From NCBI GenBank assembly GCA_029891345.1, contig CM056994.1, positions 61,597,251 through 61,661,250 of the forward strand: 64,000 nucleotides of DNA, in the 5' to 3' direction. Shown here piece by piece: positions 4,331 through 56,171 of this stretch (its first letter is position 1; every line of letters starts with the position of its first letter). The notes under the pieces were generated by a model. That model saw only the letters and a program-made list of their open reading frames with translations, did not search any database and had not been told where the DNA came from. Origin of the DNA: Dryococelus australis. Lineage: Eukaryota; Arthropoda; Insecta; Phasmatodea; Phasmatidae. Made by a program: the position numbers and the translations under genes.

Positions 4331-5556
4331 TAAGCTATTGAGATGCAGACACGCTCCTTTCCCTAGACAGTCACGCGTCAAGTTGAAAGAGAAAGTACTT
4401 CAGTAGGTGCTTGAGAGATGATAGCAGGAGAATCTGAATCCTCTGCCATACTGGGCCAGAAGAAATACTTTGTTGCATTTGTTTTTATTGAGGGTTAGAT
4501 GGCTCTCTTAAAACATTATCTGAAGTCTCAAGTAGAGAATCACCACATGGAGCCAAGTGCTGAGTAGAGACCATAGTTTCCTGTCTTGATAGTTGTACTC
4601 ATGCATACATAGGATTTGCTTAGATTAGTCTCACTTCTTTGACTAAAGGATCTTATTTGCTCTACCTAACATGTTTCTTCATAAGAACTCTTCCAGGAGA
4701 CATTAGTCATAGTGGCAATGAAGTTCCCGGTGGTGAAAGATAAGTTCATGAGGGGTAGCATTGGTAGATATGGAAATTAATGATCTTAATGCATGCAGAG
4801 ATTCCTGAAGTACTGATTCCCAGTAGCTGACAGGTAGATGTTTGGTCTTAAGTGCAAGGCACATACTTTTCCAGATTATTCCATTGTACCATTCTACCAG
4901 CCCATTTCCTTGAGGGTTATATGTAGTTTAGCTTGTCCCTATTCCTAGAGTGTCACGATAGGTCCTTAATTCATCTGACAAAAAGAAGCTACTCAATATT
5001 AGTGGATATAAGAATGCTATCAAAACATAAATATGAGGTAGTCGAGTTCCTTAATAATGCTTGCAGTGGTTATATCTGCATGTGGGATAATAAAAATAAA
5101 TCTGCAATATTCATAGATGAACGTAAAGATTTGGGGGTTCTTTGATACTATAGGAAGTAATCCCTTGAAGTCAAGGTTTAATCTTTTGGAGGCGCTCGTT
5201 GTTTTTATAAACTTCCCATTTTCTCTTCGGAAGAATTTTGGTTTAATTTGACAGCATATTTTGTACTGAGACTGAACTCTTCGGACATCTTCAATAGTGT
5301 AGAGCAGATTCTGAATACAACATCAGCTGCAGAATTTTTTTATGCTAACCAGTATATTATATTGTATGAGTATGGTGCTAGTTCCAGATGTCAGTGCAGT
5401 ACTTTTTTACTAGAAGTTAGCCCGTGACCTTTTTTCTTTGTATTTTCACGGGGCTAGAACAGTTACCATGTTAAAAAATTTGGTTAACATATAAAAACCT
5501 GAAAAAAAAAAAAAATTACATAGATATATGTAGGTAATAATGAAATGATGTGAAAG

Positions 5557-5573
5557 TAACTCAACATTGAAGC
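5557..5573 (+). repeat. 17-bp direct repeat, left flank of box A array
   Basis: TAACTCAACATTGAAGC is identical to 6236-6252 on the other side of the array. This is the appearance of a target-site duplication or of a breakpoint duplication. Confidence 0.85.
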
Positions 5574-6235
5574 GACTGCGGTCCTATTTAACATTTCTCT
5601 ATCCACTTGGCCACTGCAGCCCCACTTAACATAGTGCTATCCACTTAGCCACTAAGGCCCCACTTGGAATCACTCTATCCACTGAGCCACAAAGGCCAGA
5701 CTTAGAATCTCTCTATCCAATGAGCTACTAAGGCCCTATTTGATATATGTCTATCCACTTGGCCACTGCAGCCCAACTTGTTATAGTTCTATTCATTAAG
5801 CCACTGTGGCCCCACATAACATAGTTCTATCCACTGAGCCACTAAGGCCCCAACATGGAATCGCTCTATCCACTGAGCCACTAAGGCCCCACTTGATATT
5901 GTTCTATCCATTAAGCCACTGCGGCCCCACTTGGAATGTCTCTATCCACTGAGCCACTAAGGCCCTACTTGGAATCGCTTTATCCACTGAGCCACTAAGG
6001 CCTCACTTGATATAGTTCTATCCACTGAGCCACTGCGGCCCCACTTGGAATCCCTCTATCCATTGAGCCACTAAGGCCCCACTTGGAATCTCTCTATCCA
6101 ATGAGCTACTAAGATCCCACTTGGAATCAGTCTATCCTCTGAGCCACTGTGGTCTCACTTAACATAGTTATATCCACTGAGCCACTAAGGCCCCACTTGG
6201 AATCAGTCTATCCTCTGAGCCACTGTGGTCTCAAT
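5574..6235 (-). repeat. Tandem array, 17 units of 38 bp, each with a tRNA-type box A
   Basis: Aligning the recurring CTATCC string gives starts at 5599, 5637, 5675, 5713, 5751, 5789, 5827, 5866, 5904, 5942, 5980, 6018, 6056, 6094, 6132, 6170 and 6208. Spacing is exactly 38 bp, with one 39-bp exception. On the minus strand a typical unit contains GGGGCCTTAG followed by TGGCTCAGTGG and ATAGAGC. TGGCTCAGTGG fits the RNA polymerase III box A consensus TRGCNNARYNGG, and the surrounding bases resemble the acceptor and D-arm of a tRNA. No box B was seen in the unit. At least two unit subtypes are interspersed ('ACTTGGAATC' and 'ACTTAACATAG/ACTTGATATAG'), suggesting multi-unit duplication steps. Units differ at several positions, so the array is not recent. 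Confidence 0.9.
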
Positions 6236-6252
6236 TAACTCAACATTGAAGC
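6236..6252 (+). repeat. 17-bp direct repeat, right flank of box A array
   Basis: An exact copy of 5557-5573. Bases immediately outside the two copies differ. Confidence 0.85.
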
Positions 6253-7682
6253 AAGACATTTAAAGTGAACAAAAATTAATTCCATTATTTTCATATCTCT
6301 ATGCAATATTCCCTATGCATTAATACAAAACTTTCATAGGGAAAAAATAATTAAAAAATTAATTTTTAGGGTAAAAGGTAATGATTGCGTAATCTGATCT
6401 TGCTGAAATTCGAACTTGACCTGTATTTTACCCTGAGGATTCACTCTGCAATATTTGAAGAACTTCTGTTGCGTTTCAAGGGACTTAGAGGTATTAAAGA
6501 CCGACAGACAGACAGAGATCATTTACTTATTATATAGGATTCTTTGTCTTGCCTTTCTGCTTGTTATCAAACAAGTGTCTCCGGATGAGGTAATGCCTCA
6601 ATTTTCTGAGGGCTTCAACGATAGCATAGGCTTCCTTCTCAACTGCTGAATGCTTCTGTTCATAACTGGACAAAGTCCTGGAAAAAAAGCAACTGGTCTC
6701 CCATTCTGAGTCAGTGTCGCAGCAATAGCACAGTTAGATGCATCAGTCTGAACAACACATAGATCATCATCTTCTATAGCCATCAAAACACAGTTAGCTA
6801 AATTTCTCTATGTTTTCTATTATTTACCAAAGAGTGAATCTTGTCTGAGAATTTCGGAATCCACTTTGAATAATAATAAAATATTCCAAGAGCTCGGAAT
6901 AAAGAACAAAGATCACGAGGAGCAGGATATTCCAGTATTGGTTTGATGCGATCTGGATTAGGCTTGCTTTCCTTGTCCCTGATTAAATATCAAAGTACAT
7001 CAATAGATCTTGCAGAAAATTTACATTTATCTTCATTCAATGTGAAATTGTATTTCTTTAAAGCAGACATAAAACATTCCAAGTTTTTATCATGTTCCTC
7101 TTCGTTCTCACCACAAATCGTTAACATCATCTAGATATGGAAAAGTGCCTTCTAATCCTTTTGGGCATTATTCATAGTCGTTCTTAGTCTGGACTAAGGA
7201 AAGATCATTCTCTGACCAAATTTTTTCATATTCAGAGAGACTTATTATTTCTAGTCCAGGGATCATCTTGCTTTAGTACCGACTAACATTTAATCCAGAA
7301 TTAGGGTAGGATTAACAATGTATTAAAGTCAAACAGAAACATGCCGAACTTAAAATAAGACAAGTTTGTAAAATCGCATGCAAGTGAAAACTACATAAAA
7401 TTTACAAAACACAAAAAATACAGTTAATGCTGATTCTGTCAATATGTTGAAGCAAAAATATGCTAACTTAATGAATTAAATGTTCTGTGAATAATATTTC
7501 AAAGAGAATATAATCATAATACACCAGTTTTAAGCTACAGTAATGCCTTTTGAATTTCTGCTTCAATCAAATGCCTTCTCTGAAAACATATTCATACCCG
7601 ACGCGATATTAATAATATCAAAAAGAATTTTTTTACAAATCCAATTGTGACAAAATATAGAGTAAAGTATTTTATAGCATTA

Positions 7683-12489: not shown

Positions 12490-13075
12490 CAAGACCTCAT
12501 TCCCTCACAAAACAATATTTTAAAAGGTAGGTGTGTTACTGTTAAAATTATTCCTGTGAAATGCACAGATACGAACACAGATTATTTTCAAAATTGGCAT
12601 AAAAACAGGACTACAGATTGGCTTAAAATGTGGTACTCAATGAGACAGTTTGTTTAAAGTTTGCTGCAAAATATAACATTATTCATTCATGAAAAAATAT
12701 TTAAAGGTAGGTGTGTTATGGTTAATACATAATACTAAACACTGCAATAAAAATATTGAATATCAATTAGTAAAAACTTGCATGTATGTATATAATTACT
12801 CAGGACTACAGATATAAACACAGATTACCATCAAAATTTGCATAAAAATGAGGCTGTGAATCAGCCTAAGATGTGGTGCCTGATGTGACAGTTTGCGACA
12901 TGTTTGCTACACAGTAAAATGGTATTCATCCAAAAAATAATATTTTAAAATGTGGGTGTGTTACGGTTAAAAATATTCCTGAGCAGTGCAAATATAAACA
13001 CAGATTACCATCAAAATTAGCATATAAACCTGGCTGCAAATCTGCCTAAGATGTGGTGCCCAGTAAGAAAGTGTT
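12490..13075. repeat. Degenerate three-unit tandem repeat
   Basis: The string GGTGTGTTA(C/T)(T/G)GTTAA recurs near 12530, 12708 and 12955. The string CAGATTAYYWTCAAAATTDGCAT recurs near 12578, 12823 and 12999. Each unit also shares GGCTTAAAATGTGGT or CCTAAGATGTGGTGCC. Unit spacing is about 178 to 247 bp because the units differ by a block of roughly 70 bp. The copies are diverged. No coding potential. Confidence 0.75.
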
Positions 13076-13564: not shown

Positions 13565-13865
13565 AGGTGTTTAATAAGTATTCACATAATGCATCAGCAA
13601 AGGAGTGAGTGAGTGAAGATATTTGGGCATTTCTTAACATCAAGGTCTTAAGAGCCAAAGAGGGTGAAGCAAGACGAGTATGGAGCAGCACCGGTATGAA
13701 AGGGTGGGGGAAACGAGAGATCCCCGAGAAAATCTGCCGACCAGTAGCCTTGTACGGCACTATTCCCACATGCAAAAATCTGGGAGCGACCCTGTCGGAA
13801 ATCAAACCCGGTTTGCTCAGTTGGGATGTGAGTAGTCTAACCACTACACCACCAGGCCCCTCTCA
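13565..13865 (-). mobile_element. tRNA-derived SINE
   Basis: On the minus strand the sequence begins GGCCTGGTGGTGTAGTGG, with TTAGACTAC after it (box A region). About 35 bases later is GGGTTTGATTTCC, matching box B (GGTTCRANTCC). The following 150 bases (containing GGTCGCTCCCAGATTTTTGC) would be the tRNA-unrelated SINE body. Orientation is minus, the same as the host gene. No long poly(A) tail is obvious. I do not recognise the family name. Confidence 0.6.
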
Positions 13866-22075: not shown

Positions 22076-22701
22076 TGCTGCGGCTGGACACAGTATGGGT
22101 TGCCAAGCAGCGAGCCGATGCGAGGCGCAGAGTGACCTCGGCCAGCCGAGCCGCTGTTGTGGAAAACAAATTCCGGGGGAATGAGCGCGAGGTCGGGAAG
22201 GCGGCATATAAGCCCGGGGCAATGGCGACTCTGGGCGCCATATTGCCTGCGACGCCAAGGGCCCTGCCCGAGGACCGCCTGCCGAGAGGACCACCTGCCG
22301 TGGTCCTGCTTCAATGCCCAACGAGCCGCTGTCGAGTGTGTCTCATCATTGACGTCGCCGCAATAAGGGTAAATATATTCCCTGGTAGGGCAACTAAGAC
22401 AAGAGAGACTTCGGGACAAGCGAAGGCTAGAGTAAGCTCCCTCAGAACAGAATATTTGCCTCTTTTCGTGATTGATTGTATTAATAAGAAGTGGCGTCAA
22501 TGCCTCCAGTCTTGAATATCTGAGCAGAGTTGTTTGACCTCTGCACTTCTCTTTATGATTGCTTATCGCTGTTACAGAGCGGACTTTGTATTGCTGTTAG
22601 ATCAATAAAAGTAGAGTTTTGTAATTGAGTGCTCTTTTCGTCTTGCTACCTTAATCCCCTTATTTAATGTGTGACCTGCTCCCACAGGATAGGCCACAGC
22701 A
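22076..22701 (+). repeat. 5' LTR of nested element
   Basis: 626 bp, with a TATA box near 22207, AATAAA at 22604-22609 and terminal CA at 22700-22701. The internal region begins AATGGTGGAGGTGCC, a TGG-initial stretch where a tRNA primer site would lie; I cannot name the tRNA. Confidence 0.88.
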
Positions 22702-23490
22702 AATGGTGGAGGTGCCTTTGCTTCCAACCCCTCCCTCTAGCTTGGAATTAAAATTTAAAATAAAGTTCACGGTAACATTCATAATATAGTAAATAAAAGA
22801 GGCTAGAAATTTCCTGAGTAATAATTAAAGTAAATTGCAGTACAATTTAAGAGGAATTCGTAGAGATGTTAAACGCCTTCCACCTGCCCACAGGGTTAGA
22901 ATTCCCTCGCAAATTACGGGTCAACGAATCCAGAGTAGTAAACGATAGTAACAGGGTGAGCACTCATTCAAAATCCAGTGTATTGTACTACTCAGCAAAA
23001 ATTGCGACAGTGACAGAGCACGTGAGCAGAAACTACCGCGTTGCACATACCTCGGCCATAAGGTCGCCCAGTATTTAGTAGTGTAGTACCTGTGAGCTTT
23101 GCTTTGCTTTGCTTATTGCATGCCTAACCACAGCTCCGCTTTTCAGACCTTTCTCCTGTGCTTAACGGAATTTCAGTAGATGTATAGTGCCGATCCTGGC
23201 TCACCTTTCATTTTCATTGAAATAGCGAGGGTTTATGTTTCAAAATCAAGGTTTTTGAGTCTAAATTTAGGATCTAAAAATTTTTTAAGAGGAGGTCATA
23301 AAAACAAGCTAATTTAAGCTAAAATTGAGAAAAATTTTCAAAATGTAAGCAAGAACCATGAAAATTTATCACTTTTCAAGCAAATTTTCACGTTTTTTAG
23401 AACTCGTTAATTTTGCAGGCAAGCAATCTAAATCAAGTGAATTTAAGAAAAAAACAGGCAAAATAAGATATAATCAAATTTAAAAATATT
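22702..23490. other. Interior of nested element, nothing recognised
   Basis: The primer-site region is followed by AT-rich sequence with no supported coding domain. A gag would be expected here in an intact LTR element, but none is recognisable. Confidence 0.45.
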
Positions 23491-30893: not shown

Positions 30894-31514
30894 TGCTGCG
30901 GCTGGCCACAGTAAGGGTTGCCAAGCAGCGAGCCGATGCGAGGCACAGAGCGACCTCAGCCAGCCAAGCCGTTGTTGTGGAAAACAAATTCCGGGGGAAT
31001 GAGCGCAAGGTCAGGAAGGCGGTATATAAGACCGGGGCAATGGCGACTCTGGGCGCCATATTGCCTGCGACGCTGAAGGCCCTGCCCGAGGGTCGCCTGC
31101 CGAGAAGACCACCTGCCGTGGTCCTACTTCAAAGCCCGACGAGCCCGCTGTCGAGAGCGCCTTATCATTGACGTCACCGCAATAAGGGTAAATATACTCC
31201 CTCGTAGAGCGACTAAGGCACAAGAGACTTCGGGACAAGCGAAGGCTAGAGTAAGCTCCCTCAGAACAGAATATTTGCCTCTTTCCATGATTAATTGTAT
31301 TAATAAGAAGTGGCATCAACGCCTCCAGTCTTGAATATCTGAGCAGAGTATTTTGATCTCTGAGTTTTTCTTGATGATTGCTTACCGCTGTTATAGAGCG
31401 GACTTTATATTGCTGTTAGATCAATAAAAGTAGTGTTTTGTAATTGAGTGCTTTTTCGTCTAGCTACCTTAATACCCAATGCGTGACCTGCTCCCCACAG
31501 GACAGGCCACAGCA
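30894..31514 (+). repeat. 3' LTR of nested element
   Basis: 621 bp, the partner of 22076-22701 and colinear throughout. AATAAA lies at 31423-31428. It is followed by the target duplication ATAC and then by BEL/Pao sequence again. Confidence 0.88.
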
Positions 31515-34500
31515 ATACCATCCAAACAAAAGAAGATAGAAAAACACAAGTCTTCTTTGAAGAAACACGTTCTCATAACTCAAATGGAAGATACTGTGTA
31601 GTTCTGCATTTCAAGAATGAACGCCAAGCCTTGGGAGACTCCAAGACAGTGGCATCTCATCGATTTTTGTCCCTGGAACGCAAGCCTGCTCAAAATCAAA
31701 GGTTGAAGGTGGAATATCATATGTTCCTGCAGGATTATCTCGACCAAGGCCATATCAAAATTATTGGGGAGCTTTCATTGGTAAGTGCCAATGAGTACTT
31801 TATCTCTCACCACTGTGTAACTTGCCCAGGGAATCTAAGTACTAAACTTAGAGTGGTGTTTGACGCATCAGCCCATGCCAGTAATGGGTAATCTCTCAAT
31901 GATCATTTACTTGTTCGACCAAAGCTATTGCCTAATCTTGTAATGGTTTTGATCCATTTCCAGCTTCATTTGGTTGCACTTACAGCAGATGTACAAAAGA
32001 TGTATAGTCAAATTCTACTACATCCTAATGATCGTACTTATCAGAAAATAGTGTGGAGATTTTTATCAGATCAACCATTGTTTGAATACCAGCTCAACAC
32101 AGTGACATTTGGTCTTTCGTCATCACCTTACCAGGCGAAAAATGTCACTCACAAGTTGGCTTTGGATGAAAAGTATAAGTTTCCCACTGTGGCTCAAAAA
32201 TCATGCAAAATGTTTACATGGATGACATCCTGACTGGTGCAACTCCACTGAGGAAGCTATTAGTCTCCAGCATGAGCTTACAGGCATCTTGGAATAAGGT
32301 GGTTTTACTCTTCACAAGTGGGCTTCTAATGATTCATTTGTAATGAGTCAGGTTTTCCCACCAAATAATTCTTCTAGTTCTCGTTCATTCTAATGCCCTG
32401 AAAATTATTCTATAAAGGTCCTTTGTTTGTAGTGGAATTCTACATCTGATTGTTTCTCGTATTTGTCCTAACCTACTGCAGGTATCAAATGTACCAAACT
32501 GTCAGTTTTGTCAGTGGTTGCTAGGATCTTTGACCCCTTGGGTATAACATCAATAGCTTTGTTTATTAAACAGGTTATCCAATAACTCCGGTCACTGCAA
32601 TTAGGTTGCAATGATCTGACTCCAGAGATCTTGCTGAAGAAATGGAGTCTTTTCAGAAAGAACTGGATGATCTTCCAAAGGTGACACTCCAACGCTATGT
32701 AGTCCCATTGGGAGCTAAAAGGTTTGTTTGAGTTGCACAGATTTGCGGATGCTTCAGAAAGAGTATGCACTGCTGTAATCTATCTTTGGGTAGAAGTGAC
32801 CGAAAAGGTTGTAGTGTGTTTGGTCTGTGCCAAATCTAAAGTAACGCCTCTTAAGGCTCTCACGTTACCAAGGCCCGAACTGTGTGCTATTCAGTTACTT
32901 GCCAAGCTGATGAAGGTTATCGCTGAAGTCTACGCCATTCTGCCGCGGCTGGAGCTGTTCACTTGGTCAGATTCCATAGTAGTCTTTACCTTGGATTAAA
33001 TAAGAAAACAAGGAATGGAAGACCTTTGTACATAATCTAGTTGATGAGATCCAATCTCTTGTGCCAACAATGCACTGGGCGCATGTTCGATCAGAGAAAA
33101 ACCCAGTGGATTGTGCCTTCAGGGGCTTGTTGCCCTCTCATCTTCTCGACCACCTCCTTTGGTGAAAAGGACTTACCTGACTATCTCAGTGCTCCCCTCC
33201 CACTAAAGGTAGTGAAGCCAGTGAAGCTCTAATAAATCAAGAAGAGGTGGAATTAGACAGACAGCCACAGGTATTTGCAGTTATAGTAATAAAATTGGAT
33301 TCTTTTCCTTTCACTAACTACACTTCTCTAACTCAGTTACAAAGGATTATTGCATGTTGTTTTAGATTTGTGAACAATTGTCGTGCAAGTCATCCCAGCC
33401 GAGGACCGTTCACCTCTGTCGAGCTACAGCATGCTCTTCTTGCTTTGGTCAAAATTGTGCAGGAAACCAACTTCAGCAGGGAAATTGAGAATTTGCAGAT
33501 AAGGAAACAATTCCCCAACCAACTGTGCAGCCTACATCCATTTGTGGATGGAGGAGGATTTTTGAGAGTGGGAGGCCACCTACAGCAAAGTTACCAACAA
33601 AAGCATCCATTGTTACTTCCTGCGAAGCATCATTTCAGTTTATTGCTCACTGATTCTGCACATAAAAAATATATTCATGCAGACCCTATGTTCATACATT
33701 CATTGCTACGACAGAATTACTGGATACTGAGTGCTCGTCGCACCATTAGACACAGGCTAAAACAGTGCAATCAATGCTTCCGTCATTCGCCACAACCATG
33801 TGCTCCTCCAATAGGTGACTTGAATAGCTGTAGAGTGCAACAAGCTCGAGTCTTCCTACATGTTAGGGTTGATTATGCTGGTCCATTTATGGTCACCATA
33901 GGGAGATTGAGAGGTGAAAAAATCTTACAAGGCATACCTCTGCTTTTTTGTGTGCATGAGTACAAAGGCACTGCACCTGGAACTTGTAACAGTACTGTCA
34001 ACAGAGCACTTCCTAGCAGCACTCAAGAGAATGACAGGCCGTCGAGGAATCTGCGCTCATGTCTATTCAGACCAAGGCAAAAATTTTGTCAGGACTACGA
34101 CAGCACTGGGAGAGCTATATAGTTTTGTAACCTCTAATGCACATCACCAACAAATGTTGACAAACTTAGCATCTGAGGGTATCAAGTAGAAACTGAACCC
34201 TCTAGTAGCACCTCATTTCGGAGGATTATGGGAGACAGGAGTGAAATCTGTAAAAAGGCACTTATCACATGCTGTTGGCAGCAAATTTTGACCTACGAAG
34301 AACTGAATACATTGTTTACTCAGGTTGAGGCAATTTTGAATTCTCGTCCCCTCTGTTCTGTTAGTGACTATCCTAATGACCTAACAGCTTTGACTCCACA
34401 TTTCCTGGTAATGGAACTTTTGAAAGCAATTTCAGAACTGGAGTTAACAAACACTCCTCTTTCACACTTAAATCATTGGCAACTTATCCAACAAATACAC

Positions 34501-38387: not shown

Positions 38388-39850
38388 TTACACAGTCGTC
38401 CTGGTTGATGCTGGTGATGCTATCCTGGTCTCACTCAATGGCGGTGGGCACGCCCCTCTTTGAATGCGGCAATTCCAGGCATCTGACTCACTGCTCCAAA
38501 GGTGTGGGTTTGACCAACCGAACCTAGCCTCAGTCTTGTACACCAACCCTCTCACCACTGGGTGGTACTCTGGGCTGGTACGAAGTGATGGGGAAAAATA
38601 TACAATTACAACCAGAGCAGGTGCAACTGCTTCGCATCTGAGTTCTGCGGCACGGTCCTGTTCCTCATGTCTTTCCTTCGTGGGAGATGCAAGTGCACTC
38701 AACTGCTTGGCAGCAAGGAACTCTATGTTTTGCTCACTACACTTTTTGCCGTACCTCACCTGGTAAGACACAGAGTTGCTGCTTAACAAGATATGGAGTG
38801 CACCATGATGAGGAAACAACGTCACAGTGTATGTCCAGTATCGGCTTGCTGACACAGGCTCGGTAAGAGTCTCCACTGATCCTCCAAGCTTTGCGGGCTG
38901 ATCAGAGAAATGGAGCTGTGTGAGCCACTAATGCCTTTACTGCATGTGCGTTCATTCAAGGTTGAATGACAGGTCTCAGCCTACGGTTACCCCCAGCACT
39001 TAGACAGTGCTCTGGAGCAAGGAAATAATCTGGGATTGCCGCCCCTCCTTGAATGAAGGTGTTTCTAGTGGTTGTGGCTATTCTGTTCCTCCCCTCCGGC
39101 ACTAATCAGTACTCTGGCGGTAGGAAAGCAACAGATGGCCATTTAATGGGTGTGTATAAGGACTGATGGACCCTTGAGGGGCACCAGTAGTCAAAGCTAA
39201 TTCAGTTGTTAAAAAAGTCCCGGTTCATATAAATGGTGCACGTCATAACTGGTTTCTAGCGGGTGAATAGAATGATACTCTGTGAAAAAAACAAGCTGAA
39301 GTATAGAGAACAAATTATGTTTATTGAGAACTCAATAAACATGCAACACGTGCTAGCTCCTACCAGGCAGTAGTGTGCTGAAGGTAATTACCTTGGCCAG
39401 GTGTAAGCGACCTGGTTCTGGTTAAAGAGGGAAAGATAGCGCTATACGAAAAAGAATACTTTACTACTAACTGAACTAAAGAAAACAGGTGTCTAGAAGA
39501 CACAAAGTGAATTTAATAAGAATTAGCATGTTCACTGTTCGTTGGATGACTAGTCGTCATAGTTGGAAGTAGCCACTGGGGGCGTACTCAAGACTTGGAA
39601 GATCTCTGTATGTCCCAGCACAGAGCAGTGCTCAAGATATTTCGAGAGAAGAAACAAGAATGACTCTGGAAGAATGACTGCTGGAGCCCCGCTGCACACG
39701 GACTTATATAGTGCTCAAGTCTACACTGCCGCAGCAGGGTACGGGGAAGGCATGACATCCTTCTACCCTGGCGCAGGAGTTGAAAATCTTTGGTCAGCAG
39801 TAGTCAGAAATACTGCTTCATTCATCTTCGGTAGCGCTTGCCTTGCTGGG
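38388..39850 (-). mobile_element. Ty3/gypsy-lineage LTR and leader, minus orientation
   Basis: Read on the minus strand, the LTR comes first. The core promoter has a CTATATAAG TATA box at 39711-39703 and TCATTC at 39677-39672, 32 bases apart. Then come the lineage hairpin at 39397-39415 and a perfect 12-bp poly(A)-signal hairpin at 39317-39342. About 440 bp further is the leader frame 38876-38388 (162 codons), containing AAKQLSALASPTKERHEEQD, PVVRGLVYKTEARFGWSNPH and AWNC, which aligns closely with 58995-59275. No gag or pol was seen after it. It is a fragment and appears to be one of the less decayed LTRs here. Confidence 0.68.
39317..39342 (-). promoter_or_regulatory. LTR poly(A)-signal hairpin (minus copy)
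   Basis: ATGTTTATTGAG, a 2-base loop AA, CTCAATAAACAT: a perfect 12-bp stem. It is one of four LTR copies in which TGTTTATT pairs with the poly(A) signal region AATAAACA. Confidence 0.75.
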
Positions 39851-40620
39851 TAATAGGCGGCTTGTAGGATCTCAGCAAGGGGGGAAGGGGGGGACACGGC
39901 ATGCCTGCTGGTTGCGTAACCTTGTGGCCACATGCTCGGCCGCTTGGCAGATTTTCAGCGGCCAAGAACTCATGTGTGAAGTGTTGCATGCACAATTCTC
40001 TCATGAGTGATTTATGTAGACAACTCTTACGTAGGTTGAAGTAAGGGTGTACTTCACGTAAAGAGCAATGAGTCATAATCGTAGTTGATTCGTAGTAGGA
40101 GCAGCACGCATCAATATTTACTTCCAAATGCACAGTACTGTCATTTTTGAGAGCAAAATATATTTGTTTTAATGGAAAACAATTTATATCAAAGGCAAAA
40201 TTAAACTTCAAAGTTCTTTGAGAAACAAAATTTCCTACTGAAGTGGTGGTTTAACCTGTAGTTTCATTTGTACATCAATATATTTTCCCTTAAATTTTCA
40301 CCAAAAAGCTTAGGCTGAATGCCATCTTACATTTCAGTAAATATGGTAGTATTGTTCATTTCTGTTACAAGAAGTTCAAGATTAAGAATTAGTGACATAT
40401 AACTACTTTTCAGAAAAAGTGCTAAGAAAAAAAGTAAATAAATTAATAGTGTTAAATTCTTGTTACAAAAAGTTACAAGAATAAAGTTCAGATACTGTAT
40501 AACATTACTGTTTTTCAGACAAAACGCTAAAAATAAATAAATAAAATATATTGTTAAACAGCTTCACCTAAGCCACCCATTATCTCTCTGAAAAACATAC
40601 CTTAAGATATCTGCACTGAC
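39851..40620. other. Intronic spacer, nothing recognised
   Basis: AT-rich intron sequence between an LTR fragment and RPAP1 exon B. The minus-strand frame 40211-39822 shows no domain. Confidence 0.45.
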
Positions 40621-41875: not shown

Positions 41876-44800
41876 CCCCCCCCCCCCCCCCCCAACCCTT
41901 GTCAGACGACACCACATATTGAAGCAGTTAACTTGTGAGTGAGATTGCAGGCTGAAGAAGATAGAAGCCGATGACCCTAAACGCAGTGAGCTCCGAGGCC
42001 AACCAGATCTTCAGATTGACGCGTGCCGCTTATACATCTAATCTTATACTATTACAACTCATCACCTAGAGTATCTCTTCCACCACTACAGACGTGGGTG
42101 ACATGTTGCCTACCCTACAGGCAATGGGCACTTTAGGAGAATCCTTCTCACCTGGAAGATACGCAACCCGACAGGCACGCCCCCCGCCCCCTGCTGAGAG
42201 CCAACAAGCTGCCCAGACCTCGGGCAAGGCCGAGTGCCTCCGACGAGGCATGAAGCAGAATCGCTGACTAGAGTATTCCCACGCCAACCAGGGCCGGAGG
42301 ACGTCACACCTCCCCCGCACCCCGCGCTGGCAGCCTACAAGCTTCCACTAAAGTCCGGACGCTGCCGAACTCTGCAGTCATTCTTGTTCCATCTCTTGTG
42401 TTATCCCACAGCACTGCTGCCAGTGCTGGGACCACCTGAGATCTTCGAAGCATTGCATATTCACCCTGCGACTACTTCACCCAGTTGCATTCATGCAGGA
42501 ATGCGAAAAAGAATTTAAAGGAATGGACCTACCACCGAAACAATGGGTTGGCCGGGCCCAACTGCATTTGAAGGGCCTCGCCCTCACATGGTGAGAAAGA
42601 TACGGGGAATTTTTAACGGACTGGAAGCAGTTCAGTAACTGGATAGCAGCGGAATTCACAGGAGAATAGGTGTTGACTAGGCTAACTACACAGTTATATA
42701 GCCAGACCCAGGTACTTGACGATGAAGCCGAAATCTTCATACGAAGATAAGAACAAATGTTTCGACGGGTGTTTCCCGGAGTCAACGAGAACTACCGCTG
42801 TTCATTCCATCAGTCGAATGTTATTGCCAAATCTCCAAAACGTACTCTTGACAGCAAGACCCACGACCTTGGATGAATTAGTTAATCGAGCCGGAGAAGT
42901 TGAGCAAAACTTTGCAGCACAGACTAGTCTCGAAGAATCAATATCCGCCAAGGCCTCTGAGGTACGAACACCACCTACTGCACCTACTAAAGGCGTACCA
43001 ACCCCAACCCATCATGTGGCATTCATACTCAAATACTGGTTGTGTCTGGAAAACCACTGGAACAAGGACTGCCCTCAGAAACCAGAAGGAGCTGCCGTTC
43101 CACCAAACTGAGACGATAAAACGTCGACAAATATCCCACCACGACCAGTTGGAAATCCAACCCCCCGAACCAAGCCGGAAAACACCAACGCCAAGGTACG
43201 AAGCGGGCCACCACCCCGGGTTTACAAGGGCTCTTCCTCCAGGGATTAAGTGAGGAAGTACCGATTCCCATAGCCCCCCACATAGAGGTGGAGGTAAATA
43301 ATAATAGGATACTCGCCCTACTTGACTCAGCAACCACCGGAAATTTTATCAGAAAGGATTTGTTAACATCAGACCAGCTCGCCGAACTAAGACCACAAAC
43401 CAAAATGGTAAGAATGGCGCAACCTGAATCCAGCCTGGATGTAACAGGCCGTATAACTATGAACATAAAAATTCAAAGTATTGCTACACTGATAGAATTC
43501 ATTGCATTACTAACCATGTTTGAATCGATGATACTAGGGTGCCCAATGGCTCATCCACAATCAATGCATTTTAGATCACGGACAACAAAGAGCCTATCTG
43601 GGAGAAACTCACCGAATTACCGTAAACTGGGATCAAAATCCGGACGACATGCTGCCAATGCCCATCGACCCAACGAGCATTAAACACGAACTTAACGAAC
43701 CAGAATTTTCCCAATTAAAGGCCATACTAGATGAACACGCCCGAGCATTCGAAAACAAGGAGGACTCCTACGACAGACACGTTCCATGCAGTATGAAATA
43801 TGGCCAACCACTGATGTACCAGTCTACAACCGTCCATATCAAGTGTCAGCCCATCGCCGTGACCTCATGATGGAGCAGGTCAACAATATGAAGGACCAGG
43901 GCATTGTAAAGTCATCAAATTTGCCATATAATTCACACGTGGTCCTCGTACCAAAAACAGGCGGGAAATTACGATTTTGTGTAAACTACAAGTCATTGAA
44001 TGAAGTTACCCACCCGATCAGTCCTCCAGCTATAGACTTGTCTCATACACTATGAGACATTGCCAAGGCCAAAATATTCAGCACTCTCAACATGAAGTCT
44101 GGCTATTGACAGATTGCTGTCTACACGGACAGTCACAAATATACGGCCTTTACAACACCAGAGGGAGAAACCCTCCAATTTAGAGTCATGCTTTCTTCTT
44201 GAAAAACGCCCCAGCAACATTTCAACGATTAATGTCGGCCGAAGTATTAACAGGTTACATTGGCGAGTTCTGCTTCTCTTATCTCAACGATGTAATAATA
44301 TAGTCCAACAGCTGGGAGCAGCATCTAGGACATCTGCAACGAGTATTAGAAAGACTTGAATTACACGGAATGATTTGCAAGATGTCGAAAAGCTTCTTCG
44401 GCAAGTTTTCAATCAATTATCTGGGACACGCCATATCACCTGAGGGAAACTTCCCCCAACACAGTTTGATACAAGCGATCGAAGAAGCGGAAGAACCTTC
44501 AAATAAGCGACAACTACGACGGTACCTGGGTCTGCGTAATTGGTTACGAGACTTCGTTGCAAATATTGCAACATATATGGCACCACTACATACACTCCTT
44601 GAGAAACAGATACGTTGGTGATGGGGTCCAGAACAACGACAAGCATTTTCCAACTTGAACAGCTTCAAGAATATCCACCAGCTCCATCGACCACAAGGAG
44701 ACAAACCCTTAATACTGCAAATGGACGCGTGTCAAAACAGGCTGGGCGCAGTAATTTACAAGCAAGACATAGAAGGACATCCACATATGATAGCGTATGC

Positions 44801-47790
44801 ATCTACCCGCTTAAACGAAACAGAGCAGCGCTACCACATCAATGAGCAAGAGTATTTGGCCATTATCTGGGCCATAAAGAACAGGTATTATCTTGAAGGT
44901 CAACACTTAATTCTACGGACCAATTCCAAAGCCCTCCAATGGCTACACGAGTCCCGGAATTCGAAGGCCAAGCTCGGGCGGTGGAACATATTCCTTACTG
45001 AGTTCGACTTTGAGGTACAGCATTGCCCAGGAAAGGAGAATGATCTGCCAGATGCCCTGTCTCAATTCCCAACAACCGAGGAGAAAGCCGAGGAGGAAGA
45101 GGTGGAGAAAATGTCTCCCTCCCTTCAGGGCAAAAGAAGTCCGGAAGAACAAATACATCTTCTCCAACTGCAAATAACCCACCAACAAAAAACCTTAAGC
45201 CAGCAGGAGAACCCCGACATCCAACGCCTACTACGGGACCAGCCCCAGCGATTCAAACTCCGGGATGACGACGTGTGGATAAGTAGCGGACAGTCCAATA
45301 CGCCTTGGAAAATCTAGGTTCCACCACACCTACGTGCCGATATATGCCGGTACCTCCACAACCATCCCCAAGCTGGTCACCCGGGTACTTGGGAAACCCC
45401 GCTGGACATTAAAACCCGCTATAATTGGGACAGGATAAGCCGCAATCTCCGACAGTACGTTAGCAACTCATGTGCTGCCATGGGAAAGCTTATCCGGTTA
45501 CCCCTCCCACCGCAAAACCACGGAGACCCAAGACGACCTGGACCTACATCGCTGCCGATCTGATGGGCCCGTATCCACGGAGCACAAAAGGGAACCGCTA
45601 CCTGCTCATAGTAACCAATCAATTTTCAAGATGGGTAGAGGCATTTCCTCCACCCAGCCAAGAAACCACCCCAATTGTGCGGAAAATGGAGATTTTCTCA
45701 CGATGGGGATATTCAAAAGCCATACAGACAGACAATGGCACACAGTTTATAAGTCATCAATGGCAAACCACCTGTCAAGAGTAGGGGTAGACACCTGAAC
45801 TACTCGCACCTTCCAGCCCCAAGGCAACCCCACTGAACAGAGGAACCAGGAGATCAAGAAATGCCTCCGTATCAGTCTGGGTAACGATCAAAAACATGGG
45901 ATAAACACATCCCCACCATACAGTTTGCCCTTCGACGCTGCACAATGAAGCCGTCTATACCATAACAAGCATCCTACTCCTGGGTCAAACATTATGCTGA
46001 CCAGCTAACTGGCAATGGGAACGCAAGCCAACCAACATGCCTCAACCCGAGGACATCTGCAAGCAGCCTTAGTCTGCACCACACATGCCCAGCAAGCCCA
46101 AACTGCATACATTCTCAAGAAATACCCCCAACCGAGAACTGGGGTAACAGAATTTAACCTAGGGGAAGCCGTCCTTCTGCAAAATCACCCTCTAAGCAAA
46201 GCCAGCAACCAATTCAGCACTGGCCTTGCTGACAAGTGGGAGAGACAGTACCGTATAGTAGGCAAGAGAGACAATTTCTACTGGGCCGAAGATATACAAG
46301 GACGAATACGTAAGACTACCCGAGGCCAGATATGACCGTACCCAGGGAACTTGCCGATACTTGGGGACGACGACGCAGGAGGAGATTCTTCTGGCCAGTC
46401 CGAAGATGAAGACAAGACCCCACCCAAGAGGGTTGCTCCAGATACCGAACTGGGATCCATGCCAATACCTGAGCCGATGCCGCTCATCGTTATTAAACCT
46501 CCCAGTTACATCACCCCATGGAAGCCCGAAGAAGAATGATGCCAAGGTATATTTTCTGTCAGCTCAATGCCCTCGATGCTAAGCAGCTATGCTGAGAAAA
46601 TCACAGCCAAACGCGGCACAGCAACATCTGGCTGCTATGAAGTGTCACGGCAGAGTCCACACGACTGAGAACCCCATCAGACACCCCGCCGATCAAGCCG
46701 AATTAGTGAACGATCAGAGGCCCTTTTGGCGAGATGGGTAGGAATTCCACCAGTGCCTACACCACCACCCAGTACCACTCCGAAGCCAGAAGTCAAGGCC
46801 GTACCTGCTTCAACGAAGTCAACCTCTGGCTCCGACGAGGACGAACCTGCCACGCAGGAACACCCGCCTATCGAGACGGCGAGCTGCCACGCCAGAAGTG
46901 CTCCGCCTCAAGTACCTGCCATGCAGGAACTCCCGCCACCCTGGAAGTCAAGCTTGGACAAGAGTGTTCCATCCCAGGAACAACCTGCCACGCAGGACAA
47001 CCCACCTACCAAGACGTCGAGATGCCATGACAGAAGTGCTCCGCCTCAAGATCCTGCCAGGCAAGAACTCCCGCCAGTTTGGACGTCGAGCTCGGACAAG
47101 AGTGACCCATCCCAGCCACCTGTTACACAGGAAACTCTGCTAACTGGAGTGTCGAGCTGCAACAGACATGCTTTGTCTTGAAGTCCTGCAACACAGGAAT
47201 ACCCTCAGACCCGGACGTCGAGCTGCCACATTGGAAGTGCTCTGCCCCGCCATCTTGATACACGAGAGGCTGCTTTTATTGAGAATGTTGATGCCACCCA
47301 CTGCCCCTCCACAGGCACATCACCCGCAGTGGAGGTCGACATGGATATCCCCTCCACTGCCTTGCCCCAGGACTTAGCCACAGAGACCGCCGATGACGCT
47401 CATGACCTAGTACCACGACGAGCTGTGCTGCCCACAGTCGGGGTGAGGATCTTTCCCCTTGCACTGCCCCATCAGAGAAACATCCTGCCCTACGGGTAGG
47501 AACCTGTGCAGTCGGGGTGGAAGGCTTGACACTCCCCCACACTGCTTCAACATCCCTTGAACGAATGCCTTCCCACTGTGTTGCAGCAGAAACAGATGCC
47601 ACGACCGCACAGGCTGCTCCACGACGCCTGATGTCTCCACGTACCGTCAATGCCACCCACACACCTGGCCGGTACCGGGAATCACCATAGAGACCCACAA
47701 CCAGGTATATGTGGCCATACCCTCTGCATGCTGCCGTTCGTCCAAAGGGGAGGCCCGTTGAAAGTGAAACCGAAGATCGCTAGTAAGCGC
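41876..47790 (+). mobile_element. Ty3/gypsy copy B with pol and repeat-rich 3' region
   Basis: An LTR-like segment (42018-42480) is colinear with 49640-50070 and 57700-58160. Then come a capsid part of gag (about 42500-42900; LPPKQWVGRAQLHLKGLALT), a single zinc-knuckle-like CLENHWNKDC near 43045, and a retropepsin-like region (about 43288-43560). Next are reverse transcriptase (43800-44620; VVLVPKTGGKLRFCVNYKSL, INYLGHAISPEG) and RNase H (44690-45060; LILQMDACQNRLGAVIY). Integrase (45330-46335) contains AADLMGPYPRS, AIQTDNGTQF and a C-terminal FNLGEAVLLQNHPLS. A proline-rich frame with 69-bp tandem repeats follows. Broken, with roughly ten breaks. The gag-pol order is standard for Ty3/gypsy. 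The final part (about 47650-47790) resembles 54830-54930 in copy C. Confidence 0.85.
46846..47255 (+). repeat. 69-bp (23-codon) tandem repeats, 3' of gypsy copy B pol
   Basis: CCTGCCACGCAGG-like strings start at 46846, 46915, 46984, 47053, 47119 and 47185, giving spacings of 69, 69, 69, 66 and 66 bp, all multiples of three. Units alternate between two types, so the true period is 138 bp. One type translates to PATQE.PP..T..CH.RSAPPQ and the other to PA.QELPP.W.SS.DKS.PSQ. The region is Pro/Ser/Gln-rich and lies after integrase, where env or an accessory frame would be in other elements. Confidence 0.85.
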
Positions 47791-50345
47791 GCAAAGTTTA
47801 ACAACAGTGTAGTGGCCATAAACCACTACTACGTGCACATGACAAAAGGACTCGTTAAAGACCGGTCACGTGCACCACATTCAATTTAGCCGCAAGCAAA
47901 AGATATTGACGTAAGCAGAACAATCACATTTAGGCTACATTAAAAGGATTCAGTACAGTTCAAGTACAAAGAACTAACAAGGTAAATGAACTAGTAATTA
48001 ATCACTTGACTATGTGACAGTTAACTTTTTACATACAGCCATAAAAAGCTGTACGTCAGTAACTTTTGATAGACATTTTACACCTCACGGTTCAAGTGTT
48101 TCAGTCGCTGACAGCCCACTTAAGTAAGTAGCATTACGAATAGATGCTCTCCACATTGCCAGTAATGGCTACCATTAACAAATCACGTAAAGACGCTCAC
48201 CACAGTGCCAGTGATTAAGTTGAAGACAGAGACTTCGACTTTACAATAACATTTTAGATTTTATATTTTATAATGATCATCTATAAACCTGACTTGATGT
48301 GTAGGTAAACCTATAAATGTCACGATACGTTTTGAAAGTGTTTATGTAAAGATCACTTACATGAAGAATGCCATCATGTAAGAGTGTGTTTTCAGCACGG
48401 ACAAAAGTGAACATTCCTTAGGAACTTATCTTGAACATTCCAACGAAGAAACACAGTGTACCTACTAGATGTTAGACCTACAATATAAGATGGACTCCCG
48501 CAAGGGATAGCTAGGTTAGTTTTTTTTAAATTCTTTTAAGCATTAAATCTGAATTGATGTTAGGCACACAATTAAATATCATAATACGTTTTGAAAGGGT
48601 ATATGTGAAGATCGCCTACAAGAAAGAATGAAGTTTTATAGGAGGGTATTTTTATGTGTATGCTTATATGTGTATGTGCTTTTGTTTACAATATCTTGTG
48701 CACCTACTCAGTTATCAACCAAAGACTCTGAGCGTTAAAGCTCCCTAAATCTGGTGCTAGATATTCTTTACTTAAAAATTTGAGTGTTTATGTGTATTGC
48801 ATTTAGTGACCAACGTGCGCACAATTTGCCGTGATAGTCATGCATGTAGTGTACACGCTTTGTATTTTTTTAGTTGGTCAACCCAGGTATTGAAGGGCCT
48901 GTGATTGGTCACTTTGCAATCTGTCACATGTAACTATTTAGCTTGCTGACAGACACAGAGGTTTCCTGGAAAGATTTTCCTTTTTCTTTCTTAACTCACT
49001 GCAGCAAGCTCCAGGATAGTATTGGCGTTTCCCCGCCTTCCGCGAGTAAGGCTTGTACATACTATAATTATTCTTACTTTAATCCCCTCGTTTTGACGTG
49101 CCACTATTTCAAATGATATTTCTTTCAAGTTTTATGTACGATTCCCTTGTAATATCCACCAGTGCTATGCTGGTTTTTGTCAATGGCACGCATATGAAAT
49201 GTAGGCCGGTGGGACACCCGACACACGCGGCTTCCTAACCTAGTAATCTTTGCACACAGGGGAATACACACACTCGCCACATCAGTAAAACCGATAATCA
49301 GGGCAAGGGGCAGAGAATGATGCCTGCCCACAAGAGAGAGAAAGAATCAAGGTCACCAGCCGGCCAACACCACTCCACGTCTCACAAATTTCGCTTCATC
49401 AGCCGGCTGCCCAGAAGCGCACAGAACACGCGCCACTAGAGCGGTCAAGGACCCCAACCTTAAGGGTACCACATACCTGTCTACAAAAAAAAAATTTCGT
49501 GCTACCTGCCTTAGCACGTCTACCAACGTCTACCCAGACCTTCTAGACCTTCCAGAGAGGAGGCCTACGCCTTTCTCCACCACCTTTTCCACGATGAGTC
49601 TTCATTGCAACGGAGTGGGGCGATTTGAGGCATGCCAATTATACATCTAATCTAATATGATTACGAATCATCGCCTAGAGTCCCTCTTCCAGCACTACAG
49701 ACATGGGTGACACGTTGCCTACCCTCCATGCAATGGGAACTTTGAGCAAATCCTTCTCAACTACTACTAGCTGAGAGCCTACTAGCTGCCCAAACCTCGG
49801 GTAACGCCAAGCACCTCCGACAAGGCACAAAGCAGAATCGCAGACCAGAGTATTCCCATGCCAACCAGAGCCGGAGGACGTCATGCTTCCCCCGCACCAG
49901 CAGCCGACAAGCTTCCACTATATAAGTCCGGACGCTGCCAGGCACGAGCGGTCATTCTTGTTCCATCTCCTGCGTTATCCCACAGCACTGCTGCCAGTGC
50001 TGGGACCGCCCGAGATCTTTGAAGCATTGAGTATGCCCCCTGCGGCTACTTCACCTTCGACGACCAGTCAACTCGACAGCCAGTGAACATGCTTACCAAC
50101 ACATTAAATTCACTTTGCCTCCTCACGACATCTTTATTAGACAGTTTAGAAGTATTATATATTTTCTCGTTGAGATAAATCTTTCCCATTCCCCATTCGA
50201 ACCAGGTCACCTACACCTGGCCACCATAGTAACCTTCAGCACTCAATTGCCTGATAGCTGCCTGTTTGCCTGCTAGATACAGGTTACCACATACACCTTT
50301 GACAAGGACCGGGGAATTTTTAACTATCAAATTAACTTCAGCCAT
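47791..50345 (+). repeat. Long LTR-like segment between gypsy copies B and C
   Basis: Several stretches match the segment 54950-58526 in the same order: 'GCTCACCACAGTGC' (48195 and 55090), 'CATAAA(A/T)AGCTGTA' (48040 and 55136), 'GCAATCTGTCACA' (48920 and 56385), then the entire block 49640-50345 against 57700-58526. It carries a TATA box (49918-49926), TCATTC (49952-49957) and the lineage hairpin (50202-50220), and ends near TTCAGCCA just before TTGGCGCCC, a primer-site-like string. The interior 48290-48640 contains a duplicated block (GATACGTTTTGAAAG near 48322 and again near 48576). If this is one LTR it is about 2.5 kb; the 5' edge is uncertain. Confidence 0.6.
49918..49957 (+). promoter_or_regulatory. 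LTR core promoter: TATA box plus TCATTC start
   Basis: CTATATAAG at 49918-49926 and TCATTC at 49952-49957, about 32 bases apart. TCATTC fits the arthropod initiator (TCAKTY-like). The same pair at the same spacing is found at 58017-58055 and, on the minus strand, at 39711-39672. Confidence 0.65.
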
Positions 50346-53300
50346 TGGCGCCCTTCAGGGGTCTGTCATATTTTCACACACCCATTAGACGGCCGCCTCT
50401 TTCCAAACTACCACAGCATTGCTTCCAGTGCCGGTGGAGAAGAACAGAGGAGTCACAACCACCAGTAACACCTTCACCCAGAGAGGGGCGACAGTCTCAG
50501 TTATTGTCTTATCCCACAGGATTGCTTCCAGTACCGGGATAAACCGTGGCTTGAGACCTGCCATCCATTCCTGTGTGGACGCACATCGATTCATGGCATT
50601 GGTGACCCATAGAGCTCCCTGTTTCTGATCAGCCCGCCTAGCATGGGGGATCAGTAGAGACATTACAAAGTTCGGTCAGCAAGCCAAAACCAGACTTACA
50701 CTATAACTTGTATTTAGTTTGTTCGCGTCAAGGTGTACACAGTAACCTGTGAGCAGAGACTTTATGCATTTCAGCCAGAGGCATGGCCAAAAACGTAGGG
50801 AGCGACACGCAGCACTCCTTGCCTCCAGACAGCTGAATGCTCTTCCTCAACTTACACCGGAAAGGCAGGCAGAACGGGACTGCGCCACCCAACTCAGGCA
50901 CGAGTCAGTGCACGTGATTTAATGTACTAATGCGAATAGGACTTCCCCAAGTGAGCATTAGTGCTCTATGATGGGGCGAAGTGGCGAGTAGAGAGCACAT
51001 GCCAACTGCACAGGAATTCGTTACACACCAACCTTTGCAGGGCTGGTAGTAGAAATCTTTATCCTCATTCCCTACTCCCGTCGAAGTGGTATTAAAAGAG
51101 AAATAAATTGGCTGCTACCGCCTTTAAGTTCAAACATGGGATCAACTCCAACCCGACTGCACTCGACATTCTAAGTCCCCAGGAGCGAGCTCAGGCCGCC
51201 CATCACCGCCTGGAGAGGCCTGTCCCCCCAGCTCCCTTCCAGTTTTATTTGTACCCCCCAGTGAAAACTGAAGGAGAGATCCACCCCATCATCCAGGCCT
51301 TCATCAGCGGTGAGGAAGTATCTTAAGCTATTGCCAACCCCTGGATCAGGGGACACCAACTCTCTGACCCACCCAGAACAGCTAGCAGTGCCAGTCCCAG
51401 CCGATCCATCAGTGCTCCAGGTCCTGGTGCCAGCATCAGCTCATCGTCATCAGTGCCACAGAAGGGTCAGCAGCCTCCACACATCACCAGTCACCCAGGT
51501 ATAGAAAGTGAGAGTGGTTCCACCCAGATGGAAGGCTATACTCACTATCCTTGACTTTGAGCAAAGCAGGAAAGCCACACGGCCAGTCCTTTTAACTGGC
51601 CAGGCTCCTGTTCCATGCTAAACAAATCAAAGTTAAAATTCACCCCGGTGTGTCTCCCCTCACACTAACCAAAACCACTTAAACCATGACGAGCCTCCGC
51701 TGTTAAAAGGCAGTCAAACGTCAAGGAGTTTTCTGGAGCCCAGCGTGGGGCCTTTGTACTTAATTAACTAGGGTAATTAAGCAGAACTAGGCCAGTGCGA
51801 CCCCAAGCCTAAGTGATCTAGCAGGGAGTTACTCTCCAATAGACCAGACTTTGAGGAGTCTTAAAACCACAACCAGTGGCACTCAAGAAACCTAGCCATT
51901 ATGTTAGACACAGAAGTGAAGGAACCCGAGCAAGCCAAAGAAAATTTGGCCAAAGCCATTGTTGAACGTTACCATAAAACCACTTGTCCTGGCACTGGGA
52001 CATAGCATAAAGTGCGCGGATTAACAACATAAATTTAATTACATCGGCCTGGGGTGGGCCGATGAAATGCGGTACATAGACTGGCTGAAGTTCAGATGTG
52101 AGGAATGGCGTACTAGACAGACAGTTTTTTTTCAGCTGGGTCACATGCCCGAGACACGGGAATAACATAGTCTGCTACATCCTATGTTCAGAATCCTTCT
52201 ACCACAGTTGCATAGGATGGCCTGAAGAAAGGGTAACAAGGCGTGCCTAGTTTACCGCAGCGAGGTATGTCGGCAAGCCGCCGAATACCGCCCAAGAAAC
52301 CTAGGGCCAGCCATTAATACTGTCACCACCCGATGCACAGGGGAACCCCAAATCCCAGAATTTGAGGACGTCCACATGAGGATCCACTTGCATTCACAGC
52401 AGAATGCAAAAAAGAATTTCATGAGAATGAAATTCTGCCGAAACAATGGGTAAGCAGGGGGCAAACCAAGATCAAGGGTAAAGTACTCAAGTGGAGGAAT
52501 AAATATAGCAAATTCATCAATGAGTGGGGAGAAATTAGTAGCTGCCTCGCCGCCCAGTTCACTGGCAAAGAAGTGCTAGCCAACCTCACCACCAATCTTT
52601 ATAGCCGTACCCAGAGTGCCAATGAGGCTGAAATATTTATATACCAGAAGATACAAATATACAAATGCCTTTTCCTTAAAATGGAGGCTGAAGAGAGTCA
52701 CGTACGTAACATCACCAGATTACTCCTACCTAAGCTCAGGTCAGGTATTTCTTACAATGCCCGAAACCACAGACGGAAGAATTAATAGAGCGGGTGAGGG
52801 AGACAGAGCACAATTACCAAGAGCAGGCAGCATTAGACCGTAGACAGGCACGCACCCTCCCCTACTCCTCCTGCCTCCCCTGCTGTGACCCCCCTCTCCA
52901 TGCACCAAGATTCTTCCTAATTGCTAGTTCTGTCCCGATCTGTCCCGAGAAGCTTTTGAACCTTGACTGTCACAAACAGTTCGCTGGCTGGACGGAAACA
53001 AGCAAAGAAAGGCGACACTCCCCACCCCCCCCCCCCCAAGCTACGGGGAAAAGAGATGATAAACCTGGCATAACACTGCAGACATTGACCGAGGACAACA
53101 ATCTCCTGAATACTCCCCGGATCAATGTGAAGGTCAACCGGCAAGTTATTGTGGCTGCAATAGACACTGCAGCCTCTAATAAATTTGTTCGGAATGACTT
53201 ACTCAACCCATACCAAAGAATCCACCTGACACCCCATGCTGGAAAGGTACAGATGGCCCAGCCAGATTGCCCTCTTCAAGTGGAAGGGAGATTAAAACTG

Positions 53301-55557: not shown

Positions 55558-55916
55558 TGATACTTGAACTTTTCCGCTGTATCTGTATCGGGCCAATCCA
55601 TTAGTATCTTTTATAGACAATGAAATTGGGTTATTACTTCCTTTAGACACAAAAATTATATTGTGTGGCTGTATGTTTTACAGTATTGATCACTCGTGCA
55701 ATAATTTGTTCACTCACATTCATTAAATAACCTTCATCCCGCACACGTAAAATGTAAACAAGTTGAAGCTCTGCTATAGAAGCCGTACATCCTGTGTTAA
55801 GAAATGCAACAAGTTAATACAAAAAAATTGAGACGACAGACGGTTTGACAGCGGCATTATATAATGATCAACTGATGCGACCTTGCTTCCTCCTCCATTC
55901 TTCTCCCCTCCCCCCT

Positions 55917-56171
55917 CCAAGGTTTGTGGGTGACGTGAGGGAGTTAGCTGCCTACCAATCAGCGTGCTACTTCTCCCCCCTCCCTATCACTCCTCCCTTC
56001 TCCAAGGTTTGTGGGTGACATGAGGGAGTTAGCTGCCTACCAATCAGCGTACTACTTCTCCCCCCTCCCTATCACCCTTCCCTTCTCCAAGGTTTGTGGG
56101 TGACATGAGGGAGTTAGCTGCCTACCAATCAGCATACTACTTCTCCCCCCTCCCTATCACACCTCCATCTC
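55917..56171 (+). repeat. 85-bp unit repeated three times
   Basis: GGTTTGTGGGTGAC starts at 55921, 56006 and 56091, exactly 85 bp apart, and the units differ at only a few bases. Each unit contains GTGAC(G/A)TGAGGG and ACCAATCAG (a CCAAT-type motif). It lies inside the LTR-like segment between copies C and D and has no counterpart in 47791-50345. Confidence 0.9.

What the first reader, a model, noticed from the sequence alone, without database searches (positions are those of the whole stretch)
5557..6252. Tandem array of 17 tRNA box A units flanked by a 17-bp direct repeat
Seen: seventeen units with almost perfectly constant 38-bp spacing. Most carry, on the minus strand, TGGCTCAGTGG or a close variant, preceded by GGGGCCTTAG and followed by ATAGAGC. 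This is the 5' half of a tRNA or SINE head (acceptor start plus box A) without box B. The array is bounded by identical copies of TAACTCAACATTGAAGC. Known: box A alone binds TFIIIC weakly, but clustered B or A boxes can act as TFIIIC sites or insulators. Inference: a SINE head was amplified, either during reverse transcription before insertion (flanking repeat = target duplication) or later in situ. A satellite made only of box A heads would be an unusual product and possibly a TFIIIC landing site.
Basis: partly seen in the sequence, partly recalled or inferred. Interest (0 to 1): 0.75.

Follow-up and report, generated by a model that had tools for sequence, protein, structure and literature searches.

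The report
Tandem tRNA-head minisatellite between direct repeats
A stretch of repeat-rich, insect-like DNA holds seventeen diverged 38-base copies of what looks like the front end of a tRNA-type mobile element, framed by an identical 17-base duplication that suggests the whole block was inserted ready-made; it is a curious minisatellite, with no sign yet of a function.

Summary
The array is real: 17 units at 38 bp (one step of 39) between two identical 17-mers. The 17-mers have no other copy in the window at up to 3 mismatches and do not align to the unit (p = 0.93). Units are diverged: mean pairwise identity 75.6%. The unit holds a tRNA/SINE-type box A; box B, a tail and a tRNA fold are not found. 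A SINE about 7.4 kb away has a similar head but is not shown to be the parent. Identical 17-mers around units differing by 24% favour insertion of a pre-formed array over growth in place (P about 0.009, but 0.105 at the rate of the conserved core). The host is probably a stick insect or relative. The closest published kind is the SINE-derived satellites of squamates (PMC10702118); this differs by its much shorter unit and lack of SINE ends. A TFIIIC or insulator role is untested and has no support here. The decisive genome-wide copy search did not complete (11 attempts). Interest is modest.

The parts
5557..5573 (.). left copy of the 17-bp direct repeat (putative target-site duplication)
   Evidence: identical to 6236-6252, no other copy in the window at up to 3 mismatches; no alignment to the unit beyond shuffles
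5574..6235 (-). sequence between the 17-mers (662 bp): tandem array of 38-bp units, heads on the minus strand
   Evidence: GC 48%
5592..6238 (-). the 17 unit frames; one step is 39 bp (extra base at 5858); the first frame overlaps the right 17-mer by 3 bases
5859..5896 (-). unit closest to the consensus (37 of 38): head GGGGCCTTAG, box A TGGCTCAGTGG, then ATAGAGCGATT
   Evidence: unit 10, 0.97 to consensus; coordinates
6236..6252 (.). right copy of the 17-bp direct repeat
5502..5515 (-). T14 run on the minus strand, 41 bp beyond the left 17-mer: the first run of four or more T met from the array start onward on that strand (could end a pol III transcript, if there is one)
   Evidence: no run of four T inside the array. 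A function is inferred only
13603..13860 (-). tRNA-derived SINE in the same window (box A, box B, ACTC tail, short imperfect flanking repeat); compared as a possible relative, not shown to be the parent

Best explanation
A minisatellite made from the 5' end (acceptor start plus D-arm/box A) of a tRNA-derived sequence, most likely a SINE head. The unit was amplified and diverged elsewhere in the genome. A block of about 17 already different units was then copied into this site through a staggered break, by a LINE-type reverse transcriptase or by break repair with filler DNA, which left the 17-bp duplication. Shown: array, unit, box A match, identical flanks, unit divergence. Inferred: SINE origin, block insertion, route. 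No function is needed to explain it; the stronger conservation of the box A part is most simply a relic of constraint on the parent.
For: Regular 38-bp array. The consensus carries TGGCNNAGTGG, seen in 65 of 100,000 shuffled 38-mer tandems on either strand, and the longer box A plus D-arm motif in 0 of 100,000 (motifs chosen after seeing the unit). Columns 16-31 average 87.6% pairwise identity against 66.9% outside. A SINE in the same window shares GGGGCC plus a box A with the majority unit (p 0.005 shuffling the SINE, 0.0105 shuffling the unit; 0.0245 and 0.036 for the second unit type). The 17-mers are identical, have no other copy in the window and are unrelated to the unit. P(17 of 17 identical) is 0.009 at the mean unit divergence. 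Adjacent units are not more alike than distant ones (lag 1 p = 0.67), as expected of an old array. Duplications of 14-17 bp stand in four HaSE1 rows seen in a passage of PMC3272025.
Against: No poly(A) or simple-repeat tail and no SINE body at either end, so LINE-type retroposition is not demonstrated. The P for identical flanks rises to 0.105 at the slow core rate, so growth in place is not excluded; units 1 and 3 are 97% alike, so some duplication is recent. The match to the window's SINE is weak: some shuffles score higher (maxima 33 and 30 against 25), and in a scan of 200-bp pieces the pieces covering it tie for first place with a place near 50.9 kb. The conserved core as a block has only p = 0.04. 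No second array and no empty site could be examined.
Confidence: 0.5

Rival explanations
1. In situ expansion: a single truncated SINE or tRNA head inserted here with a 17-bp duplication and then grew by slippage and unequal exchange, diverging over time.
For: Needs only one short insertion and ordinary minisatellite growth; units 1 and 3 are 97% alike and units 7 and 10 are 95% alike, so some duplication is recent.
Against: The flanking 17-mers stayed identical while units diverged by 24% on average (P about 0.009; 0.105 at the core rate). Neighbouring units are not more alike than distant ones.
Confidence: 0.25
2. A mobile array family: the multi-box-A block is itself the transposing unit (transcribed from one of its box A copies and reverse transcribed), with many copies in the genome, each with its own duplication.
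For: Units already diverged between identical 17-mers; no run of four T inside the array and a T14 run beyond it on the head strand.
Against: No tail; no box B better than 3 mismatches in 9 fixed letters; no second copy seen. Two-unit patterns gave 0 stretches in viral contigs and 0 in genome contigs, collections of viral and of bacterial and archaeal contigs, so this says little.
Confidence: 0.15
3. A non-tRNA minisatellite whose unit resembles box A by accident: it holds three AGTGG-type words (AAGTGG, TTAGTGG, TCAGTGG), as if it had grown from a short motif.
For: The three words can be read in the consensus; no tRNA from ARAGORN or Rfam, nor in the array at E up to 10; D-stem 3' side not kept (G10-C25 in 8 of 17, C11-G24 in 8 of 17).
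Against: Long match through box A and the D-arm (0 of 100,000 shuffles); tRNA D-arm invariants U8, A14, G18 and A21 (recalled) are 17 of 17. ARAGORN and Rfam at gathering score also did not report the SINE at 13603-13860, so their silence is weak evidence.
Confidence: 0.1

Closest known systems
SINE-derived satellites (sSats) of squamate reptiles, Vassetzky et al. 2023, PMC10702118 (abstract, background, results and discussion read; methods and supplements not)
   Same: Tandem units cut from part of a SINE; short loci with diverged units; locus-specific subvariants that can be mixed.
   Different: Their units are about 67-290 nt and most reach a SINE terminus in a longer end unit; here the unit is 38 bp, only the head, with no SINE terminus, between 17-bp duplications, in an insect-like genome.
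SINEs with short (about 30 nt) internal duplications (mentioned with references in the discussion of PMC10702118; the cited papers not seen)
   Same: Short duplicated stretch of a SINE, near this unit length.
   Different: There a duplication inside a SINE; here 17 copies and no SINE around them.
tRNA-derived SINEs
   Same: Box A and acceptor-like head; a flanking duplication of usual size.
   Different: No box B found, no body, no tail; head repeated 17 times.
Amphibian tandem repeats with tRNA-like segments (PolIII/TAN, OAX, Rana/polIII, Hy/polIII, as described in PMC10702118)
   Same: Tandem repeats said to hold a tRNA-like segment (questioned there for Hy/polIII, which lacks box B).
   Different: Units of about 200-360 nt (OAX only said to be long) against 38 bp.
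Extra-TFIIIC (ETC) sites / tDNA insulators (recalled; PMC5340127 seen in a search listing only)
   Same: Pol III promoter elements without a gene.
   Different: ETC sites rest on box B (recalled); none is convincing here.

Membership tests
SINE-derived satellite (sSat) | tandem units similar to part of a SINE family of the same genome | tested here: inconclusive
SINE-derived satellite (sSat) | end unit extending to a SINE terminus (most, not all, squamate cases) | tested here: not met
   the 662 bp between the 17-mers are covered by units and partial units; the flanks do not align to the unit
SINE-derived satellite (sSat) | many loci in the genome | not tested
   The genome search unanswered in 11 attempts
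tRNA-derived SINE | box A | tested here: met
   TGGCNNAGTGG exact in 10 of 17 units, TRGCNNARNGG in 14 of 17 (consensus words recalled)
tRNA-derived SINE | box B downstream of box A | tested here: not met
   best matches to GGTTCGANNCC in the array have 3 mismatches (3 places on the minus strand, 5 on the plus)
tRNA-derived SINE | A-rich or simple-repeat 3' tail | tested here: not met
   sequence at both inner edges of the 17-mers
tRNA-derived SINE | flanking target-site duplication | tested here: inconclusive
   17 of 17 identical and without another copy in the window, but no empty site was seen
tRNA gene array | full tRNA fold | tested here: not met
   ARAGORN 0 in window, Rfam 0 at gathering score; at E up to 10 in 5540-6270 the only match is a snoRNA model far below its cut-off (11.8 of 45 bits)
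TFIIIC / ETC site | TFIIIC occupancy | not testable with these tools
   needs ChIP data

The most novel reading that the evidence does not exclude
The box A array is itself a mobile family: a non-autonomous element made only of tandem tRNA heads, transcribed by pol III and inserted by a LINE machine, each copy with its own target duplication and its own number of units.
Probability: 0.13. Interest if true: 0.6.

Novelty: new variant of a known kind. Interest (0 to 1): 0.3.

Why it matters
If arrays of tRNA heads can move as blocks, a minisatellite could spread by insertion instead of only growing where it lies, which would add a direct route from SINEs to dispersed satellites. As it stands this is one locus, and the claim rests on one 17-bp duplication and on the divergence of the units.

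Tried and rejected
The 17-mers as worn units: rejected (score 8, reached by 93% of 2000 shuffles). A tRNA gene array: rejected. RNA-level D-stem conservation: rejected, since the 3' side varies and no pair shows a change on both sides to another standard pair. Periodicity of units above one: none clear (lags 1-8; best lag 4, p = 0.063). RNA fold of the array: z = -3.06 with 0 of 20 shuffles folding as well; not used, because shuffles destroy the tandem repeat. The test of six chosen tRNA-invariant columns (p = 0.003) was set after seeing the columns and left out R15 and R24, which are less constant (R in 15 and 14 of 17), so I give it little weight. Relatives in collections: 0 in viral contigs, 0 in genome contigs. 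Literature: ten searches brought the squamate paper and, in what was listed, nothing on a 38-bp box A array; that is absence from those searches only.

Full report
What is there. Between window 5557 and 6252 there is a tandem array of 38-bp units whose tRNA-like reading lies on the minus strand. TRF reports it with period 38, 16.5 copies, 76% matches and score 610. Anchoring on the core gives 17 units, 15 of 16 steps at 38 bp and one at 39. Two identical 17-mers frame it, at 5557-5573 and 6236-6252; neither strand of the 64 kb holds another copy at up to three mismatches.

The unit. The majority unit, minus strand, reads CCAAGTGGGGCCTTAGTGGCTCAGTGGATAGAGCGATT. Box A as TGGCNNAGTGG is exact in 10 of 17 units and as TRGCNNARNGG in 14 of 17 (consensus words recalled). 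Shuffled 38-mers repeated in tandem show TGGCNNAGTGG on either strand in 65 of 100,000 trials and the longer motif through the D-arm in 0 of 100,000; both motifs were chosen after seeing the unit. Mean pairwise identity of units is 75.6%: 87.6% in columns 16-31 and 66.9% elsewhere. That the best block of 16 columns is so conserved has only p = 0.04 under column shuffling. Four classical D-arm invariants (U8, A14, G18, A21; recalled) are 17 of 17, G19 is 16 of 17, and R15 and R24 are R in 15 and 14 of 17. The 3' side of the D-stem is not kept and no pair shows a compensating change, so what is conserved looks like the box A side and not a tRNA fold. The units fall into subtypes (TT, GC or AC before AG; linkers ending GATTCC, CTATGTT or CTATATC and variants) that are mixed along the array. 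Neighbouring units are no more alike than distant ones (lag 1 p = 0.67; none of lags 1-8 below 0.06).

What is missing. No tRNA is found in the window by ARAGORN or by Rfam at gathering score. In 5540-6270 at E up to 10 the only Rfam match is a snoRNA model at 11.8 of 45 bits. These programs also did not report the window's SINE, so they are blunt for tRNA-derived repeats. The best box B resemblances in the array have 3 mismatches. There is no A-rich or simple-repeat tail at either end, and the flanking 100 bp on each side do not align with the unit beyond shuffles (p 0.33 and 1.0).

The flanking repeat. It is not a worn unit: its best local score against the unit is 8, reached by 93% of 2000 shuffles. 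It behaves as a duplication of target DNA, though no empty site was seen. If its two copies had diverged like the average unit pair, 17 of 17 identity would have a chance of 0.009; at the rate outside the core 0.001; at the slow core rate 0.105. This favours units that were already different when the block arrived. It does not prove it: the sample is 17 bases, and units 1 and 3 (97% alike) show that some duplication is recent.

A relative in the window. On the minus strand at 13860-13603 lies a tRNA-derived SINE: head GGGGCC, a box A at one mismatch and a box B at two mismatches of the consensus words, an ACTC-repeat tail and a short flanking repeat matching in 8 of 9 bases. Its head aligns with the majority unit over 25 bases (p 0.005 shuffling the SINE, 0.0105 shuffling the unit; 0.0245 and 0.036 for the second unit type; 2000 shuffles each, some scoring higher). 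In a scan of 200-bp pieces outside the array the pieces covering it share first place with pieces near 50.9 kb, so the match is suggestive only. It shows that a SINE with this kind of head lies in this DNA.

The host. The ORF at 44622-45314 (RNase H-like domain of a reverse transcriptase) has three database relatives at E up to 0.001, all named as proteins of the stick insect Dryococelus australis, at 66-73% identity over 55-71% of the query (taxonomy). The window is therefore probably from a stick insect or a relative; this is inference from one element.

How it most likely arose and works. A SINE or tRNA head was duplicated in tandem elsewhere, the array grew and aged, and a block of it was inserted here at a staggered break, leaving the 17-bp duplication. 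The route may be LINE reverse transcription (duplications of 14-17 bp stand in four HaSE1 rows of PMC3272025; passages only) or break repair with filler DNA (recalled). The missing tail speaks against ordinary SINE retroposition. I see no evidence of function. A pol III transcript on the head strand would meet no run of four T inside the array and then a T14 run 41 bp beyond the left 17-mer, but box A without box B is a weak promoter (recalled), and this T-run is simply the other strand of an A-run.

Comparison. The closest published kind found is the SINE-derived satellite of squamates (PMC10702118; abstract, background, results and discussion read; methods and supplements not). Shared: tandem units from part of a SINE, short loci with variable units, mixed subvariants. 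Different: their units are about 67-290 nt, and most loci have an end unit that reaches a SINE terminus. The paper says it is uncertain whether such satellites are restricted to squamates, and mentions SINEs with internal duplications of about 30 nt. Here similarity to a SINE family of the same genome is inconclusive, and the terminus feature is not met, so I call this a variant and do not file it as a member.

Limits. Two-unit patterns found nothing in viral contigs or genome contigs, which hold viral and prokaryote contigs and so say little about an insect repeat. All conclusions on mobility rest on one locus.

Noticed in passing
13603-13860, minus strand: tRNA-derived SINE with boxes A and B, an ACTC-repeat tail and a short imperfect flanking repeat (CTTGGCTGA / CTTTGCTGA).
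   Followed up: partly
12506-13072: Diverged repeat pieces (72-84% identity, offsets of about 180, 243 and 425 bp) in AT-rich DNA, not in the TRF list.
   Followed up: no
22076-22702 and 30894-31515: Two copies of a 0.63-kb repeat at 90% identity, overlapped by long open frames that were not tested for domains.
   Followed up: no
42013-42487, 49624-50909, 57686-59091 and, inverted, 38618-39915: Related stretches at 68-84% identity on both sides of Ty3-type pol remains (44622-45314); they might be long terminal repeats of several elements, not tested. 51031-51716 and 60034-60707 match at 83%.
   Followed up: no
55907-56166 and 56982-57016: 85-bp tandem repeat, 3.1 copies, 94% matches, and a run of 35 G.
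   Followed up: no
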